From contig CACMDE010000006.1 in assembly GCA_902612345.1 (NCBI GenBank), positions 1 to 64,000 of the forward strand: 64,000 bases of DNA, in the 5' to 3' direction. This stretch comes from an uncultured Pelagibacteraceae bacterium (GTDB lineage: Bacteria; Pseudomonadota; Alphaproteobacteria; Pelagibacterales; Pelagibacteraceae). Made by a program: the position numbers and the translations under genes. Numbering within the stretch: position 1 is the stretch's first letter; each line of letters starts with the position of its first letter. The notes below the pieces were generated by a model that saw only the letters and a program-made list of their open reading frames with translations, was not told the DNA's origin and did no database searches. This document shows, in pieces, positions 28,749 to 56,658 of this stretch.

Positions 28749-29342
28749 TTAATTTTTTTGTATCCTTAAGTCTTCAACTAACAAAATACTTGCAATCACA
28801 TCTTCTACATCCAGTATCTGTTTAGCTTCATCAATTACTTCGTCTCTCTCTTCTATAGTTTCTGCGATACCATAAATATAAATCTTCTTTTTATACGTAT
28901 CTATATTGTAATTAACAGCTTTAGTTTTTTTATTAAATATTAAAGCTGATTTAAGTTGAGATGTTATTAATAAATCTTTTGCAGAACGTTTAAAGTTAAA
29001 CTCGTCTTTTATTTTAAGGTCATTTTTTACAGATCTAGCTCCTTTAATTTCCCAAGCTAGTTTGGTTATATTCAATTTTTCTTCAACTTTGTCAACTTTA
29101 CCTGTGATAAAAATTCTTCCATCTATTATTTTTGTTCTCACATTTAAAAGGTAACTTTTGTTTGTAGATAATAGTTTTGCATCTAAATTTTTATCCATAA
29201 TCGAGTCATCAATTTGAGTTCCAACAGTCCTTGGGTCCATTGCAACTGTAACACCTGTTCCAAATATCCCAGTTGAGGATGTCCCAACGCATGATGTCAA
29301 ATATATTAGAATTAAAAGTATAAATAAAAATTTAATTTTCAT
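28749..29342 (-). CDS. BON-domain outer-membrane lipoprotein (DolP/YraP-like)
   Basis: A predicted lipoprotein starting MKIKFLFILLILIYLTSC, with lipobox LTSC and the acylated Cys at residue 18. Two BON domains follow (about 50-115 and 125-190), as in E. coli DolP (YraP), which helps maintain outer-membrane integrity. I chose this start, 24 codons inside a longer frame, because it begins the signal peptide; it overlaps the rsmI stop by 11 bases. The neighbourhood rsmI plus LpoA-like plus BON mirrors the E. coli yraL-lpoA-yraP group. Confidence 0.85.
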   Translation of the reverse strand: MKIKFLFILLILIYLTSCVGTSSTGIFGTGVTVAMDPRTVGTQIDDSIMDKNLDAKLLSTNKSYLLNVRTKIIDGRIFITGKVDKVEEKLNITKLAWEIKGARSVKNDLKIKDEFNFKRSAKDLLITSQLKSALIFNKKTKAVNYNIDTYKKKIYIYGIAETIEERDEVIDEAKQILDVEDVIASILLVEDLRIQKN

Positions 29343-30183
29343 TTTTGATTTCAAGACAATAATTATAAATTTTTGATTTTGAAATATTTTTTTCTTGAGA
29401 AAACATGCGAACAATATCTTTTACCGATTTAATATTAATGAACTTTTTGATTTTTTTTTTATCTGATTCGTTTAAATCTTTTTCATTATCTTTTTTTTTT
29501 TCAGAAATTATAACTGTAACTTCACCCCTCGGATTAAATAATAATTTATCAACTTCAGATATTTTACCTCTATAAAAACTTTCATGGAGTTTAGTTAACT
29601 CACGACATATTAAAACTTCTCTATCAATAAAAAATTTTTTTAACAATTCAAATTTTTTTTTCAATTTTTTCGCTGATACAAAAAAAATAATTGAACATTT
29701 AAGATCTTTAAAAAATTTAAATTCTTTATTAACTGAGTTATCTGTATCAGATAAAAATCCGTGAAAATAAAACTTATCCGAAAAACCTGAAATTGATATT
29801 GATGTAGTGATGGCTGAGACACCAGGTATAGGAATAATGGTGATATTTTCCTGTACGCAGCGTTTTACTAATATTCTACCAGGATCAGAAATGGTAGGTG
29901 TTCCAGCATCTGAAATTAATGAAATAATTTGATCTTCTTTCAAATAGTCAATAATTTTTTCTAAATTTTTTTTTTCATTAAATTTATGATAAGAAAGAAT
30001 TTTTTTATTAATTTTATAATTAGTTAATAACTTTTTAGAGACTCTAGTATCCTCGCAAAGTATAATATCAGATTGGCTCAATACATCTAGAGCTCTTAAT
30101 GTAATGTCTTTCAGATTTCCTATAGGAGTTGAGACTAAATATAAACCATTCTTAATCTTATTTTTGTCTTCTTTTAGTGCCAT
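29332..30183 (-). CDS. rsmI: 16S rRNA (cytidine-1402 2'-O)-methyltransferase
   Basis: Methylates the ribose of C1402 in the 30S decoding centre. The 283-residue tetrapyrrole-methylase-fold protein has LYLVSTPIGNLKDIT and SDAGTPTISDPG. The C-terminal third is Lys-rich and includes the small RsmI helical domain. It is divergent from the LpoA-like gene with 27 bases between them. Confidence 0.96.
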   Translation of the reverse strand: MALKEDKNKIKNGLYLVSTPIGNLKDITLRALDVLSQSDIILCEDTRVSKKLLTNYKINKKILSYHKFNEKKNLEKIIDYLKEDQIISLISDAGTPTISDPGRILVKRCVQENITIIPIPGVSAITTSISISGFSDKFYFHGFLSDTDNSVNKEFKFFKDLKCSIIFFVSAKKLKKKFELLKKFFIDREVLICRELTKLHESFYRGKISEVDKLLFNPRGEVTVIISEKKKDNEKDLNESDKKKIKKFINIKSVKDIVRMFSQEKNISKSKIYNYCLEIKNEN

Positions 30184-38131: not shown

Positions 38132-38234
38132 TTTTTTTCCTTTTGAAGCTTCCTTTGCCTTTTTTTGGTTTTACTTTTTTCTGACTAAATTTCTTTGATA
38201 AAAGATCTTTTGCGATAAAGTTTCTTTTTTTCAT
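38103..38234 (-). CDS. arfA: ArfA-like alternative ribosome-rescue factor (43 residues)
   Basis: A very small, highly basic protein starting MKKRNFIAKDLL. Its core KPKKGKGSFKRK matches the E. coli ArfA core KNKKGKGSYMRK. ArfA binds ribosomes stalled without a stop codon and recruits RF2 to release the peptide. The ATG overlaps the TGA of the upstream winged-helix gene (ATGA, 38231-38234), so translational coupling supports it being real. It ends with RLFVE and a stop inside the 3' end of the PfkB gene. E. coli ArfA is about 55-72 residues, so this is a minimal form. The assignment rests on one short motif plus size, charge and coupling. Confidence 0.72.
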   Translation of the reverse strand: MKKRNFIAKDLLSKKFSQKKVKPKKGKGSFKRKKTKSSRLFVE

Positions 38235-38797
38235 TTGGAAACCTCATAGCCATCTTTTGTATTCAAAATAAAATTATTATCACCGAAAGCTTCCATAATT
38301 TTTTTTCTTAATCGATAAATATGAGTTTCTACAGTGTGTGTCTCTAGATCACCAGATTGCTTCCAAACATTTTTTTGTAATTCTACACTTGAACATCCAA
38401 TTGTAGATTTATTGAGATAAATTAACAAATTTATTTCTCTTTCAGTTAATTTTAAAGAAACTTTTTCTTTAGAAATTATTCTTGAATTAGTATCTATTGT
38501 ATAAATGCCTATGTTAATATTGGATTTTATTTCATAGTTACTTTTTGACAAAAAAACATTTATCTGCTGTAGTAAGTTTTTAAGTTTGAAAGTCTTATTG
38601 TAATAAATAAAGTTTTTATAATTTCCTTTTAAATCAGGGGAAATAATTAATACTTCAGGGTTTTCATTTATATAAGCCTTAAAATCTCGATTATTTTCAT
38701 TAAAATTAATCAAATTAAAATTTAATTCCGATTTAATCTCATTTAATATTTCATATAATATAGGCAACTTTAATAAAGCAACATTAAATATATTCAT
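38231..38797 (-). CDS. Atypical response regulator with OmpR/PhoB-type winged helix
   Basis: A 188-residue regulator. The C-terminal half (about 100-186) is a clear OmpR-type winged helix: LTEREINLLIYL, ELQKNVW, ETHTVETHIYRLRKKI, LNTKDGYEV. The N-terminal half keeps the outline of a receiver domain, including KTFKLKNLL, which resembles the KPF-helix 5 region. It is short, and the expected phospho-acceptor Asp position reads PEVLIIS, without Asp. It probably works without phosphorylation. No sensor kinase gene is adjacent. It is coupled to the ArfA-like gene and divergent from an L,D-transpeptidase with one base between the start codons. Confidence 0.78.
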   Translation of the reverse strand: MNIFNVALLKLPILYEILNEIKSELNFNLINFNENNRDFKAYINENPEVLIISPDLKGNYKNFIYYNKTFKLKNLLQQINVFLSKSNYEIKSNINIGIYTIDTNSRIISKEKVSLKLTEREINLLIYLNKSTIGCSSVELQKNVWKQSGDLETHTVETHIYRLRKKIMEAFGDNNFILNTKDGYEVSK

Positions 38798-45275: not shown

Positions 45276-46265
45276 ATGATAATTAAATCATACAAATTAG
45301 CTGACATAAATAATTTAAAATCAAATCTTTTTTTATTTTATGGAGAAAATGAAGGTCAAAAGGATGAAGCTATTTCGGAATATTTTTTGAAGAGTTTTAA
45401 AGGAGAGGTGGTCAAATATGATGAAAATCAAATAATAGAAAACAAAAATAATTTCTTTGATACGTGCTATAATGAATCTTTATTTGAAAACTCTAAAGTA
45501 ATTATAATATTAAGAGTTACATCAAAATTATATGAAATAGTTAAAGAATTAATTTCTAAAAGGATTTATAATAAAAAAATTATTTTTAATTCAAAAGCTT
45601 TAGATAAAAATTCTAAGATTAGACAACTTTTTGAAAAGGAGGATTACCTTGTTTGTACTCCATTTTATCTTGAAGAAAACTATTCACTATACAAAATTGC
45701 TAGTCAATTTTTTAGGAACAATAAAATCTCTATTTCTAATGAAAATATCAATTTGATAATTGAAAATTGTTCAGGAGATAGAAAAAATTTACAAAATGAG
45801 ATGAATAAAATCTTAAATTACTGTTCAAATAAAAATAAAATTAATAAAGATGAGATTACTAAATTAATTAATCTATATGAAAGAGAAAATTTTTTTGAAT
45901 TAGTTGATAATTGTTTAGCTCAAAATCATAAAAAAGTTCTCAAAATAATTAATAATAATTCATACGATAAAAATGACTCTATGATTATTATTAGATCATT
46001 AATTACAAGGATAAAAAGATTAATACTATTGCAAAAGAACTTTTTGGTGTCACAAGACATAAATAAAACAATTGATGGATTTAGACCACCAATATTCTGG
46101 AAAGACAAAGAAATTGTAAAAAGACAGATAGATATTTGGACATCAAAAGATATTTATAAACTATTAGATGAAGTAACTTTTCTAGAGGTTAAATTTAAGA
46201 AAAATTATGATTTATCAAATAATCTGATTTTCGATTTTATACTAAATACCTCAACTAATAATTAG
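45276..46265 (+). CDS. holA: DNA polymerase III delta subunit
   Basis: Opens the beta clamp within the clamp loader. The 329-residue protein has the AAA+-like delta fold: FLFYGENEGQKDEA at the N-terminus and a C-terminal helical domain, with low overall conservation as usual. It follows lptE by three bases and converges with parB with an 11-base overlap. Confidence 0.9.
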   Translation: MIIKSYKLADINNLKSNLFLFYGENEGQKDEAISEYFLKSFKGEVVKYDENQIIENKNNFFDTCYNESLFENSKVIIILRVTSKLYEIVKELISKRIYNKKIIFNSKALDKNSKIRQLFEKEDYLVCTPFYLEENYSLYKIASQFFRNNKISISNENINLIIENCSGDRKNLQNEMNKILNYCSNKNKINKDEITKLINLYERENFFELVDNCLAQNHKKVLKIINNNSYDKNDSMIIIRSLITRIKRLILLQKNFLVSQDINKTIDGFRPPIFWKDKEIVKRQIDIWTSKDIYKLLDEVTFLEVKFKKNYDLSNNLIFDFILNTSTNN

Positions 46266-47097
46266 CTTTTATCACCATTACAATTCTATCCAACTGATCT
46301 GAGTTATTATATTCAAAAGATAAAGTTCCTTTATTATTTTTCTTATGGTGAATTTTAGCTTGTAATCCAGTTTTTTCCTGTAAACTTCTTTCTAAAGCTT
46401 TAATATTACTATCATTGCTAATCACTTTAAATTTTCTCGGAGATTTATATATCCTAACCAACTGTTCAGATTGCCTAACTGATAATTTTTTATCAATTAT
46501 TTTTTTTGCAATTTTTGAACAATTTTCTAAACCTACTAGTATTTTTGCATGACCTTGAGATAACCTTTGTTCCTCAATTAATTTAATAACGTCAGTTGGT
46601 AAACTAAGCAATCTGAGACAATTTGTAATGTGAGCTCTACTTTTTCCTATGAATTTAGCAACTTTCTCTTGGTCATAATTAAACTCATCTATAAGCCTTT
46701 TATAACCATTTGCCTCTTCAATTGGATTTAAATCATCTCTTTGAACGTTTTCCACTATTGCAAACTCCAATGATTTTAGATCATCTGCTTTTATTTCAAC
46801 TATAGGTACTTCGTGTAATCCAGCATTTTGAGCTGCTTGCCATCTTCTTTCACCCGCAATAATTTCATATTTATCCGATTGCTTTCTTACAATAATTGGC
46901 TGAATAATACCTCTTTCTCTTATAGAGTTTGTTAATTCATCCATTTGATTTTTGTTAAAATTTTTTCTTGGTTGAAATTTATTTCTTATAATAGAGCTTA
47001 TTGATACTTTGTTAGATTGGGGCGAAGGACTTGTATCCCCTATTAGCGATGATAATCCTCTTCCTAATCCTTTCTTTAATTTAAATGTATTTGTCAT
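46255..47097 (-). CDS. parB: Chromosome-partitioning protein ParB
   Basis: A CTP-dependent clamp that loads at parS and segregates the origin with ParA. The 280-residue protein starts KKGLGRGLSSLIGD, has the CTPase motifs (AGERRWQAA and ENVQRDDLNPIEEA), the HTH around EKVAKFIGKSRAHITNCLRLL, and a C-terminal dimer domain. Its start overlaps the parA stop by four bases. Its expected target, a perfect parS, lies in rsmG at 48464-48479. Confidence 0.98.
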   Translation of the reverse strand: MTNTFKLKKGLGRGLSSLIGDTSPSPQSNKVSISSIIRNKFQPRKNFNKNQMDELTNSIRERGIIQPIIVRKQSDKYEIIAGERRWQAAQNAGLHEVPIVEIKADDLKSLEFAIVENVQRDDLNPIEEANGYKRLIDEFNYDQEKVAKFIGKSRAHITNCLRLLSLPTDVIKLIEEQRLSQGHAKILVGLENCSKIAKKIIDKKLSVRQSEQLVRIYKSPRKFKVISNDSNIKALERSLQEKTGLQAKIHHKKNNKGTLSFEYNNSDQLDRIVMVIKANY

Positions 47098-47894
47098 GCT
47101 GCGGTCTCCATTATTTTTTCTTGGTTTATAAATTCATCAGTGAAATTAAAATATGATTTACTCCCAGGACATGATTTATCATAAAACAGAACTGGCATTC
47201 CATGAGATGGCGCTTCAGATAATCTAACATTTCTAGGCACTACGGTTTGATAAACTTTATCTTTAAAATAATCTCTAGCTTCTCTTTCTACCTGTCCTGA
47301 CAGTTTATTTCTTTTATCATACATGGTTAACAATATACCTCTTATCGAAAGGTCTGTGTTAAGATTATTTTTTATTCTTTCAATTGTTTTCATTAGTTGC
47401 GTAACACCCTCTAAGGCAAAAAATTCTGTTTGAAGTGGAACCAAAAGTGAATTGGATGCTACTAGAGCCATAATTGTAAGAAGACTTAACGATGGTGGGC
47501 AATCTATTAATATATGGCTATAAATCCCTCCAGAATCATTTATATAAGCCATTATTTGCTCCTTTAAAATAAAGGCTCTTCTATTGTCTCTAGCTGTTTC
47601 AACCTCTAATCCTGATAGATCCACATTAGATGTTATTAAGTCAAGATTATCAAAATTAGTTTTTTCAATTACATCAGATATTTTTTGCGTACCGTTTAAG
47701 ACGCTATATATCGATTTTTCAGAATTTTCTAAATTTGATAATCCTAATCCTGTAGTAGCATTGCCTTGTGGATCTAAATCAATTACTAAAACTTTTTTTC
47801 CCTGTAAGCTTAAGCCTGCTGCAAGATTTATTACTGTAGTAGTTTTACCCACGCCTCCTTTTTGATTTATTATAGCAACAATTTTTTCTCTCAT
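47094..47894 (-). CDS. parA: Chromosome-partitioning ATPase ParA
   Basis: A deviant Walker-type ATPase that moves ParB-bound origins. The 266-residue protein has KGGVGKTTTVINLA (about 12-25), DLDPQGNAT and HILIDCPPSLS. It overlaps rsmG and parB by four bases each, giving a tightly coupled mnmG-rsmG-parA-parB transcript. Confidence 0.98.
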   Translation of the reverse strand: MREKIVAIINQKGGVGKTTTVINLAAGLSLQGKKVLVIDLDPQGNATTGLGLSNLENSEKSIYSVLNGTQKISDVIEKTNFDNLDLITSNVDLSGLEVETARDNRRAFILKEQIMAYINDSGGIYSHILIDCPPSLSLLTIMALVASNSLLVPLQTEFFALEGVTQLMKTIERIKNNLNTDLSIRGILLTMYDKRNKLSGQVEREARDYFKDKVYQTVVPRNVRLSEAPSHGMPVLFYDKSCPGSKSYFNFTDEFINQEKIMETAA

Positions 47895-48526
47895 TTTTTT
47901 TCCAAATTTTTAATTTTTAAAATTAATGAATCTTTGTTCGTTATACTTTTTTTCACCTCATACTGAATATTCCATTTCATTGAAGTTTGCTCCACAATTT
48001 CTCTTCCACTTTTTCCTAAAAATAAAATTACCTCATTAAAAAATTTAAAATTATTTTTAATTAAGTCTAAGATGACTGGTAGAGGTTTAAAGGCTCTAGC
48101 CACGATGATGTCTGAACTTAAATTTTTTTCGGTAAAGATATCTTTTTGGTAAACTTCGACATTCAAATTAAATTTACTTGTTACCTCTTTTAAAAAGTTG
48201 CTTTTGTGGAAACTTTTTTCATAAAGTTTAAATTTCATATCTGATTTTTTATGCTTCATTATTATTGCTAATACAATTCCAGGAAGGCCTGAGCCAGAGC
48301 CTATATCTGTACAAACTGATGCATTTAAATCAATAAAATCAATTATTTGTGCGCTGTCGATTATATGTCTTTCTTTGGATACTTTTTCTGTATCTTTGCT
48401 AATTAAATTAATATTTTTGTTTTTTTCTAAAATTGTTTGACGAAATTGCTCCAATTCTGGAAATGTTTCACGTGAAACATTCAGTGGTTCCAAACAGGAA
48501 TAATTTAAAAAATTCGAATCAATCAA
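47891..48526 (-). CDS. rsmG: 16S rRNA (guanine-527 N7)-methyltransferase
   Basis: Methylates G527 in 16S rRNA. The 211-residue protein has the SAM motif [15 protein letters not shown] and the IVARAFKPL segment. The N-terminal residues NVSRETF are encoded by the parS palindrome, which explains why this stretch is so conserved in the family. It overlaps mnmG and parA by four bases each. Confidence 0.97.
48464..48479. promoter_or_regulatory. parS: parS centromere site, perfect 16-bp palindrome
   Basis: TGTTTCACGTGAAACA matches the bacterial consensus parS exactly. It lies inside rsmG, about 7.1 kb from the predicted origin and about 1.4 kb from parB. This is the ParB nucleation site. By eye I found no second full-length copy in the window. 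Confidence 0.97.
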
Positions 48527-53572: not shown

Positions 53573-54565
53573 CTAAAAATTTTTTTTTATAAGATGTTCT
53601 AAAAGATCAATATGATCATTATTATCATTTAGGCATGGTATAAATTCAAATTCAATCCCACCTGCTTTTTCAAAACTTTCTTTTCCTTGAATTGAAATTT
53701 CTTCTAATGTCTCAACGCAATCAGATGCAAATCCTGGGGATATTACTAAAATATTTTTTTTACCTTCTTTGGGCAATCTTTCTAAAGTTTTATCTGTATA
53801 TGGTTGAAGCCATTCTTGTGGGCCAAAACGCGATTGAAACGTTGTAATTATTTCAACTTTTTTAAATTTTTCTGAAATTAACCTTGTAGTTTTTTGACAG
53901 TAACAATGATAAGGATCACCTTTATCAAAATACTTCTTTGGTATTCCATGGTAAGAGGCTACTAGTAGATCTGGTGTCCAGTCTATTTCCTGCATTTTTT
54001 TATTTATACTATTTACAATCGCATCTATATAGAGCGGTTCAGACTCATAATGAGGAATAATCTTAATAGCTGGCTGCCATCTCATTTTCATAAGTGATCT
54101 AAAAACTTCATCACATACTGTTGCGGTAGTTGGAGATGCATACTGAGGATATAAAGGAAAAATAATTAATTTTTCGCATCCGTCTTTTTGCATTTTCTCT
54201 ATTTTACTTTTAATGCTTGGGTTTCCATACCTCATGGCAAAATCCACAATAAAATTTCCGCTTTTCATTTTATTATTAAGTTTTTCTGCTTGTCTTTCTG
54301 TATAAAATCTTAATGGAGACTTGTTAACATCTTTCATCCATATTTCCTTGTAAGCTTTAGCTGTTTTAGAAGGTCTAAAAGTTAATATAAACAAGTTTAA
54401 TATTATTTGCCAGACAGCTGGATTAACTTCGATTACTCTTCTGTCAGACAAGAATTCCTTTAAATAAGAGCGGATATCCCACCAACCTGTAGAATCTGGT
54501 GTTCCAAGATTAATTAATAATACTCCCGTCTTTCCATAATTGACTGTTGGGTGATCAATTTTCAT
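53573..54565 (-). CDS. hemH: Ferrochelatase
   Basis: Inserts ferrous iron into protoporphyrin IX. The 330-residue protein has GVLLINLGTPDS, the catalytic His in ASYHGIPKKYF, and the DPYHCYCQKT segment. Its start overlaps the hemE stop by four bases. Confidence 0.97.
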   Translation of the reverse strand: MKIDHPTVNYGKTGVLLINLGTPDSTGWWDIRSYLKEFLSDRRVIEVNPAVWQIILNLFILTFRPSKTAKAYKEIWMKDVNKSPLRFYTERQAEKLNNKMKSGNFIVDFAMRYGNPSIKSKIEKMQKDGCEKLIIFPLYPQYASPTTATVCDEVFRSLMKMRWQPAIKIIPHYESEPLYIDAIVNSINKKMQEIDWTPDLLVASYHGIPKKYFDKGDPYHCYCQKTTRLISEKFKKVEIITTFQSRFGPQEWLQPYTDKTLERLPKEGKKNILVISPGFASDCVETLEEISIQGKESFEKAGGIEFEFIPCLNDNNDHIDLLEHLIKKNF

Positions 54566-55560
54566 TTAAATTCTTTCACAAAATTTACTAACGCTTTCAC
54601 ATTTTCTGGATCAGTTTTTGGCATAATTCCATGACCTAAATTAAAAATATATTTGTGATTTTTAAATGCGTCTAAATATTTTTTTGCATCTTTGTACATA
54701 TCGTTTCTGTCTAACAATAAGCTGTTTGGATCCATGCCTCCCTGAATTGGTATTTCAATTTGTTCAGAGATTTTATAAGGATCCACTTTATAATCAATAT
54801 TAATTGCATCCGGTTTAACTATATCGCAAAATTTTTTATATGATTCGATAGATCTAGGAAAACATATTACCTTCACACCTAAGTTTTTGGTATATTCTAC
54901 TATTTCCAATGTCGGCTCATATAAATATTTATATAATTTGTTTTCATCTAAAAGGCCGGCCCAACTATCAAAAATTTGTATTATTGTAGACCCATTTTCA
55001 ATTTGTTTTTTTATATGAAGTTTTTGTGTGTCTACAATTTTTTTAATTAATTTATCTTGATCAGACAATTGATATATTTCTTCTGATAGATTTTTAGGTG
55101 ATTTTTTATTAAACATATAAAGCAGTATTGTCCATGTACCACCAACGAAACCAATTAAATCTTTTTTTCTTACAATTTGTTCATTAGAAGTTATTTTTAC
55201 AAGTTCATAAACTGGTTTCAATTTTTTTATAATATCTTCATGTGTGGTCTTTAGAATATTTTTAATATTTAAGGTTCCAAGCCTAGGGCCAAAATTTTTC
55301 TCAAATACAACTTCTTGATCTAATGCATAAGGTATTAAAAGAATATCAGAAAAAATTATTGCTGCGTCTAATTCAAACCTTTTTAGAGGTTGAAGAGTTA
55401 TTTCTTTAGCAAGTTTTGAATTTAAACAAAGATTAATGAAATTAGTATTTTTAAATCTAATGTCCCTAAACTCTGGAAGATACCTTCCAGCTTGCCTCAT
55501 AAACCAAACTGGTACAGAGCTCGTCTTTTTGTTATTAATACAATCTTTTAGTATACCCAT
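54562..55560 (-). CDS. hemE: Uroporphyrinogen decarboxylase
   Basis: Converts uroporphyrinogen III to coproporphyrinogen III. The 332-residue protein has the signature PVWFMRQAGRYLPE and the catalytic Asp in IIFSDILLIP. It is the first gene left of the predicted origin and is read away from it, as in Caulobacter and other alphaproteobacteria. Confidence 0.98.
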   Translation of the reverse strand: MGILKDCINNKKTSSVPVWFMRQAGRYLPEFRDIRFKNTNFINLCLNSKLAKEITLQPLKRFELDAAIIFSDILLIPYALDQEVVFEKNFGPRLGTLNIKNILKTTHEDIIKKLKPVYELVKITSNEQIVRKKDLIGFVGGTWTILLYMFNKKSPKNLSEEIYQLSDQDKLIKKIVDTQKLHIKKQIENGSTIIQIFDSWAGLLDENKLYKYLYEPTLEIVEYTKNLGVKVICFPRSIESYKKFCDIVKPDAINIDYKVDPYKISEQIEIPIQGGMDPNSLLLDRNDMYKDAKKYLDAFKNHKYIFNLGHGIMPKTDPENVKALVNFVKEFK

Positions 55561-55833
55561 AATAAAATATAATAGATTCTTAGTAGTTTTATATTATTAT
55601 CTTGTGAATTAGTTTAATTAAAAATCATACACACTTTTACACATTATTTTCCACAATAAAGATGCTTTAAATTTTATATTTTTATGGAATTTATGATTAA
55701 AATTAACAATTTTTTAAAGTATTAATATATTTTTTTCACATGTTTAAATGTGTTAATAACTATTTATAGAAAACAACAATTTTAACTTATTTAAAAATTA
55801 GGACTAATTTGTTTAATAAAGTAAATTCTATAC
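55561..55833. other. oriC: Predicted chromosomal replication origin (oriC)
   Basis: The longest intergenic region in the window, lying between divergent hemE and ppsR, the arrangement known at the Caulobacter origin. It holds six single-mismatch DnaA boxes: 55603-55611, 55625-55633, 55635-55643, 55647-55655, 55732-55740 and 55751-55759. Three of these sit in tandem one helical turn apart. An almost pure A/T stretch from about 55665 to 55736 would serve as an unwinding element. Genes on both sides are transcribed outwards. Confidence 0.85.
55625..55655 (+). promoter_or_regulatory. Tandem cluster of three DnaA boxes
   Basis: TCATACACA (55625-55633), TTTTACACA (55635-55643) and TTTTCCACA (55647-55655) face the same way at 10- and 12-base spacing. 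Each is one mismatch from TTATNCACA. The helical phasing fits a cooperative DnaA filament next to the A/T-rich region on its right. Confidence 0.7.
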
Positions 55834-56658
55834 ATGAATAATACACATAATATTTATTTAATTTCAGATTCAACAGGAGAAACTCTTGAGAGAATTTTTG
55901 TGGCTCTAAAGGCACAATTTGAAAATTTTGATCACAACTTGTTCCATTTTTCTTTTACGAGAACTGAAAATCAAATAATGAATATTTTGGAAGAAGCAAA
56001 AAAAAAAGAAGAAACAATTATTTTATATACAATTGTTGATAATAAATTGGCTAAATTTTTATCACAAGAGGCTAATAAAAAAAATATCCCATGTTTTGGT
56101 ATTCTAGGGGATTTGATACTAAATTTTTCAAAGTTATTAAATCAAAAAGCAACTAATATTCCTAGTGGACAACACGCTTTAAACGAGGAGTACTATAAAA
56201 GGATAGAGGCAATTCAGTTTACAATGAATCATGATGATGGAAATGCAATTTCAGACGTTGAAAAATCAGATATAATTTTATTAGGAGTAAGCAGAACAAG
56301 CAAGACCCCAACTTCTATCTATTTAGCAAACAGGGGTTTTAAAACATCAAATATACCCCTTGTAAATGATAACTCAATACCTGATAAGCTTAAAAAAAAT
56401 CCAAAAATTTCTTGCATAATTGGCCTTGTTGCAGAGGCAAATAGATTACATGATGTTAGAAAAAATAGACTAACAACGATCAAAGAAAATGAAAATATAA
56501 ATTACACAAGCATAAATAAAATTCAAAATGAATTGGATAGTTCAAAAAAAGCTTTTCAAAAGTACCAGTGGCCCACTATAGATGTAACAAGAAAATCAGT
56601 AGAAGAAACAGCGGCATCAATAATAAAAATTCATGAAATATACTCAGCAAAAAAATGA
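55834..56658 (+). CDS. Pyruvate,water dikinase/phosphate dikinase regulatory protein (DUF299)
   Basis: A bifunctional kinase/pyrophosphorylase that switches PEP synthase or pyruvate phosphate dikinase on and off through a Thr. The 274-residue protein has the P-loop GVSRTSKTPTS (151-161), the N-terminal ISDSTGET, and a C-terminal RKSVEETAA motif. It is the first gene right of the origin, as in Caulobacter and Rickettsia. Its end overlaps maf by 26 bases. Confidence 0.94.
   Translation: MNNTHNIYLISDSTGETLERIFVALKAQFENFDHNLFHFSFTRTENQIMNILEEAKKKEETIILYTIVDNKLAKFLSQEANKKNIPCFGILGDLILNFSKLLNQKATNIPSGQHALNEEYYKRIEAIQFTMNHDDGNAISDVEKSDIILLGVSRTSKTPTSIYLANRGFKTSNIPLVNDNSIPDKLKKNPKISCIIGLVAEANRLHDVRKNRLTTIKENENINYTSINKIQNELDSSKKAFQKYQWPTIDVTRKSVEETAASIIKIHEIYSAKK

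What the first reader, a model, noticed from the sequence alone, without database searches (positions are those of the whole stretch)
55561..55833. Replication origin in the hemE-ppsR gap
Gene order on both sides (parAB-rsmG-mnmG-mnmE-rho-hem genes on one, ppsR-maf-aroE-coaE-dnaQ on the other) equals that around the Caulobacter origin. All genes nearby are transcribed outwards, the gap is the largest in the window, and it contains six single-mismatch DnaA boxes. By my rough base-composition estimate fewer than one would be expected by chance.
Basis: partly seen in the sequence, partly recalled or inferred. Interest (0 to 1): 0.72.

Follow-up and report, generated by a model that had tools for sequence, protein, structure and literature searches.

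The report
SAR11 chromosome replication origin
The stretch between the genes hemE and ppsR is very probably where this ocean bacterium (SAR11 group) starts copying its chromosome; the place is the usual one for its class, but it carries an unusual, precisely spaced set of binding sites for the starter protein DnaA that about 100 related species share.

Summary
The window is one contig of a SAR11 (Pelagibacteraceae) genome. The 273-bp, 15% GC gap 55561-55833 lies between divergent hemE and ppsR (COG1806), the published boundary genes of the Caulobacter and Rickettsia origins. It is the largest gap in the window. It holds exactly six TTWTNCACA matches with at most one mismatch.

Comparison supports the origin reading strongly. 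In 105 distinct SAR11 gaps the length is kept (266-289 bp), and DnaA-box-like 9-mers recur at fixed offsets and orientations. A two-box signature is found 39 times in 101 genomes, 35 of them in this gap. parS lies 7 kb away, also in two complete relatives. Coding-strand-corrected GC skew flips across the gap in both (pooled p = 3e-4).

The unusual part is the sites: most read TTATNAACA, with A instead of C at position 6, and SAR11 DnaA has an altered recognition-helix cap (SNRDHTT for GGRDHTT). CtrA sites are not conserved and no CtrA was found. Verdict: a known kind of origin with a lineage-specific box variant. Initiation itself is not shown experimentally.

The parts
55561..55833 (.). putative oriC: whole hemE-ppsR intergenic gap, 15% GC
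   Evidence: length 266-289 bp in 105 distinct SAR11 gaps
55603..55611 (-). DnaA box 1, TAATTCACA here; TTATTCACA in 60 of 105 relatives (anchor box)
   Evidence: at most one mismatch in 100 of 105 gaps
55625..55633 (+). DnaA box 2, TCATACACA, 22 bp from box 1
   Evidence: a box with at most one mismatch at +22 in 82 of 100 gaps
55635..55643 (+). DnaA box 2b, TTTTACACA, 32 bp from box 1
55647..55655 (+). DnaA box 3, TTTTCCACA, 44 bp from box 1
   Evidence: at most one mismatch at +44 in 87 of 100 gaps
55656..55731 (.). AT-rich middle, candidate DNA-unwinding element (inferred)
   Evidence: 100-bp stretch from 55668 is the sixth least stable in the window; sequence poorly conserved except around ATTAACAAT and TATTAATATA
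55732..55740 (+). DnaA box 4, TTTTTCACA
55751..55759 (-). DnaA box 5, TTATTAACA (A at position 6)
   Evidence: exact box in this zone in 82 of 105 gaps, A at position 6 in 77 of them
55732..55759 (.). most conserved block in the close clade, inverted repeat CACAT-GTTTAA-ATGTG joining boxes 4 and 5
   Evidence: TGTTTAAATGTGTTAATAA invariant in nine close relatives
54562..55560 (-). hemE, left boundary gene
   Evidence: TIGR01464, 290 bits, a little under the curated cut-off of 303
55834..56658 (+). ppsR (COG1806), right boundary gene
   Evidence: NF003742, above cut-off
48464..48479 (.). parS, TGTTTCACGTGAAACA, inside the rsmG reading frame (NVSRET)
   Evidence: same distance, about 7 kb, from the gap in two complete relatives
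46255..47894 (-). parB and parA

Best explanation
The gap is the chromosomal origin (oriC) of this SAR11 bacterium. DnaA would bind first to the conserved left boxes (55603-, 55625+, 55635+, 55647+), which are 22, 32 and 44 bp from the first and so on about the same face of the helix, and to the inverted pair at 55732+ and 55751-. ATP-DnaA would then spread into the AT-rich middle (about 55656-55731), open it, and load the replicative helicase in both directions. ParB on parS 7 kb away would segregate the new origins. Shown: boundary genes, box array, its conservation and uniqueness, parS, skew switch. Inferred: DnaA binding, place of unwinding, order of events. Regulation would rest on DnaA nucleotide state (an HdaA-like protein is present) and not on CtrA.
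For: Boundary genes equal those of the Caulobacter and Rickettsia origins (PMC1914354), and neighbouring divergent hemE/ppsR is found in 25 of 29 other Alphaproteobacteria inspected. Gap length conserved. 105 gaps: TTATNCACA 84 against 4 expected, TTATNAACA 248 against 15; reversed patterns 2 and 5. Fixed offsets +22 and +44 with 0 hits at control offsets. Two-box signature in 101 genomes: 39 hits, 35 in this gap by comparison, 1 hit for the reversed control. Densest box cluster in 693 kb of window, samples and dnaA loci is this gap in the two complete relatives and, with the looser pattern, the second densest is the window's gap. parS. Corrected GC3 skew: G012 -0.054 to 0.001, p = 0.012; G082 -0.076 to 0.037, p = 0.004.
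Against: No experiment. Skew was sampled (about 30% and 13% of two relatives), is weak, and does not resolve better than tens of kb; raw GC skew fits positions up to 80 kb (G012) or 200 kb (G082) away slightly better. The 105 gaps are related, so counts are not independent. The TTATNAACA form was taken from the same alignment in which it was counted. A same-family genome (G183) has moved hemE away from ppsR, so the boundary is not universal in SAR11.
Confidence: 0.93

Rival explanations
1. The gap is only a shared promoter region of two divergent genes, conserved for transcription control (perhaps by DnaA), and the origin is elsewhere.
For: Divergent hemE and ppsR need promoters; seven promoter-like pairs are found, though 5.3 are expected by chance. 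TTTATAC or a close form just before ppsR is kept in the close clade.
Against: Phased box array nearly unique in the genomes, parS nearby, skew switch, and the same gene pair bounds known origins. Both roles can coexist.
Confidence: 0.04
2. The origin lies at dnaA, about 60 kb away, as in many other bacteria.
For: dnaA is within 55-65 kb of the gap in both complete relatives, too close for the sampled skew to separate.
Against: No box cluster near dnaA in L135 or L136; parS sits 7 kb from the gap, not near dnaA.
Confidence: 0.02
3. The boxes are a chance product of very AT-rich DNA.
For: Six sites with one mismatch allowed are only three times the chance number.
Against: 20-fold and 16-fold excess over shuffles in 105 gaps, fixed spacing with empty controls.
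Confidence: 0.01

Closest known systems
Caulobacter crescentus Cori
   Same: Between hemE and COG1806, more AT-rich than the genome, DnaA boxes of more than one class
   Different: Cori is 404 bp with CtrA sites, an IHF site, two G-boxes and weak W-boxes (PMC1914354, PMC4468827); here 273 bp, no conserved CtrA or IHF site, and boxes mostly of the TTATNAACA form
Rickettsia prowazekii origin
   Same: hemE-RP001 (COG1806) gap, 82.6% AT
   Different: 384 bp; CtrA sites proposed there (PMC1914354, PMC4468827), not conserved here
Epsilonproteobacterial DnaA-DnaA box pairs
   Same: Class-specific box core together with changed recognition-helix residues in DnaA (PMC5043019)
   Different: There the core is TTCAC with T at position 5, and origins are bipartite around dnaA; here the change is at position 6 and the origin is far from dnaA

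Membership tests
hemE-COG1806 type alphaproteobacterial origin | Divergent hemE and COG1806 (ppsR) as boundaries | tested here: met
hemE-COG1806 type alphaproteobacterial origin | Cluster of DnaA boxes unique in the genome | tested here: met
   whole genomes tested with the two-box signature, density only in samples
hemE-COG1806 type alphaproteobacterial origin | Higher AT content than the genome | tested here: met
   15% GC against 29% for the window
hemE-COG1806 type alphaproteobacterial origin | CtrA sites TTAA-N7-TTAA | tested here: not met
   One in the window (55703) but not kept in most close relatives; 44 against 30 expected in 105 gaps. No OmpR-type regulator of G012 reaches the CtrA model's cut-off. 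PMC4468827 says CtrA sites are not seen in most other alphaproteobacterial origins, so this is not a strict requirement
hemE-COG1806 type alphaproteobacterial origin | IHF site WATCAANNNNTTR | tested here: not met
   None in the window gap; 10 against 8.9 expected in 105 gaps
Bacterial chromosomal origin | GC skew sign switch | tested here: met
   In two complete relatives, corrected for coding strand, coarse; not testable in this fragmented genome
Bacterial chromosomal origin | parS sites near the origin | tested here: met
Bacterial chromosomal origin | DnaA binding, unwinding and start of replication | not testable with these tools
   Needs experiment

The most novel reading that the evidence does not exclude
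SAR11 DnaA has shifted its sequence preference: a changed N-cap of the recognition helix (SNRDHTT, or TG, GD or a deletion in other AT-rich lineages, instead of GGRDHTT) goes with A instead of C at position 6 of most origin boxes, leaving one canonical anchor box and several TTATNAACA boxes on one face of the helix. This would be a co-evolved initiator-site pair.
Probability: 0.3. Interest if true: 0.55.

Novelty: new member of a known kind. Interest (0 to 1): 0.33.

Why it matters
SAR11 is among the most abundant groups of cells in the ocean, and growth estimates from read depth need a correctly placed origin. The gap gives a recognisable anchor (hemE-ppsR plus the two-box signature) that works on fragmented genomes. 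If the box variant is real DnaA specificity, it gives a compact natural case of initiator and origin changing together, with control that apparently does without CtrA.

Tried and rejected
tRNA or other RNA genes in the window: none found. The single TTAA-N7-TTAA site as a CtrA site: not conserved. GANTC methylation sites as an origin feature: one in the window gap, 3 against 14 expected in 105 gaps, no clear meaning. The dif site as an independent mark of the terminus: Pelagibacter is reported to lack dif/Xer (PMC2731167). A 583-bp gap at 28749 as the largest gap: it holds an open frame. A paper on SAR11 methylation reports an origin-to-terminus gradient but places the origin by GC skew only (PMC9516812). 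No paper naming TTATTAACA as a SAR11 DnaA box was found.

Full report
What was claimed and whether it is there. The gap 55561-55833 is real: hemE begins at 55560 on the minus strand and ppsR starts at 55834 on the plus strand. It is 273 bp with 15% GC against 29% for the window. Gene names on both sides were confirmed with NCBIfam; hemE scores slightly under its curated cut-off but has no competing assignment. The gap is the largest in the window once a missed 223-aa frame at 28749-29420 is counted. Six sites match TTWTNCACA with at most one mismatch, exactly as reported, but about 1.9 are expected from the gap's own composition (P = 0.02), not fewer than one. The three exact matches are the stronger fact: 0.09 expected, none of 1000 samples reached three.

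Which organism. Related loci are all Pelagibacteraceae or Pelagibacter (SAR11), PpsR identity up to 89%. The window is the start of contig C6 of a 34-contig assembly of 1.07 Mb, 83% complete, so its own chromosome-wide skew cannot be drawn.

Known boundary. The origins of C. crescentus and R. prowazekii lie between hemE and COG1806, the ppsR family (PMC1914354). Here 26 of 30 class-level loci, this window's own included, show divergent neighbouring hemE and ppsR. The sister-genus genome G183 is an exception: hemE has moved and rho now faces ppsR, with three TTATAAACA sites in that gap.

Conservation. In 105 distinct gaps from SAR11 species the length is 266-289 bp. TTATNCACA occurs 84 times (4 expected from shuffles) and TTATNAACA 248 times, in all 105 gaps (15 expected); the same patterns read backwards give 2 and 5. 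The sites keep position and orientation: box 1 (minus) in 100 of 105 with at most one mismatch; boxes at +22 in 82 and +44 in 87 of 100; box 5 (minus, 78-100 bp before ppsR) in 100 of 105; box 6 (10-25 bp before ppsR) in 80 of 105. Control offsets gave none. In the window the boxes are at +22, +32, +44, +129 and +148 from box 1. Multiples of about 11 bp put the left boxes on one face of the helix. Box 6 is not seen in the window's close clade. Among nine close relatives the longest invariant stretch is TGTTTAAATGTGTTAATAA at the right pair. These species are related, so the counts describe conservation and are not independent trials.

Uniqueness. The signature TGTGAATWA-N13-TNWTNMACA was scanned over 101 whole genomes: 39 hits, 35 of which fall in the hemE-ppsR gap when compared by hand with the coordinates; two others lie elsewhere and two are in genomes where the gap was not located. 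The reversed control had one hit. In 693 kb made of the window, stretches of two complete relatives and their dnaA loci, the densest TTATNMACA clusters are these gaps in G082 and G012; the window's gap has the second densest cluster with TTWTNMACA.

Position on the chromosome. An exact parS lies at 48464-48479, inside rsmG, and a parS lies about 7 kb from the gap also in G012 (one mismatch) and G082. dnaA lies about 60 kb away in both. Skew was measured on spaced samples of these complete genomes. Third-codon GC skew averaged over genes of both strands, so that gene orientation cancels, goes from -0.054 to 0.001 in G012 and from -0.076 to 0.037 in G082 across the gap; one-sided rank tests p = 0.012 and 0.004, pooled 0.0003. 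Raw GC and AT skew favour nearby or, in G082, more distant split points slightly over the gap, so skew supports the region and not the exact site.

Regulators. HdaA-like proteins and GcrA are present; a CcrM homolog in SAR11 is reported (PMC3973325). Among the OmpR-type regulators of G012 none reaches the CtrA model's cut-off. CtrA and IHF consensus sites are not conserved in the gap. CtrA control as in Caulobacter is therefore unlikely here.

The unusual part. Most SAR11 boxes have A at position 6, except box 1, where 60 of 68 exact cases are TTATTCACA. In AT-rich (gap GC under 0.40) Alphaproteobacteria, the twelve hemE-adjacent origins whose DnaA has GG or GN all have more C6 than A6 boxes; five lineages with another cap (SAR11 SN, G183 TG, G161 GD, G151 and G150 with one residue fewer) have more A6. 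This grouping was made after seeing the data, two of the five are ppsR-upstream regions without hemE, and the A6 lineages are mostly the most AT-rich ones. It is a lead, not a result. In Epsilonproteobacteria a C to A change at position 6 is reported as rare but tolerated, and changed helix-5 residues are thought to alter box preference (PMC5043019), so both a real shift and simple weak boxes remain possible.

Conclusion. Origin: very likely. Kind: known. Variant features: a short gap, a phased array, A6 boxes and no CtrA input, of which the A6 boxes are the part worth testing.

Noticed in passing
48464-48479: Exact parS palindrome embedded in the rsmG coding sequence (NVSRET); a parS at the same distance from the gap in two complete relatives.
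   Followed up: yes
38231-38797: Short OmpR-type DNA-binding protein without a recognisable receiver domain, with counterparts in G012, G082 and G183; function unknown, no NCBIfam match for the G012 copy.
   Followed up: partly
main-clade SAR11 gaps such as L014 and L020, mid-gap: Strongly conserved TGAAGCTTT in 42 of 105 gaps (0.1 expected), absent from the window's clade; unknown binding factor.
   Followed up: no
L181 1400-3807: In the sister-genus genome G183 hemE has moved about 580 kb away and rho faces ppsR; the 353-bp gap has three TTATAAACA sites, so the origin may have kept only one boundary gene.
   Followed up: partly
gaps of 105 SAR11 species: GANTC (CcrM site) is scarcer than composition predicts, 3 against 14.
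   Followed up: partly
28749-29343: Probable small lipoprotein gene (looks like a BON-domain protein by eye) on the minus strand, easily missed by simple ORF filters.
   Followed up: no
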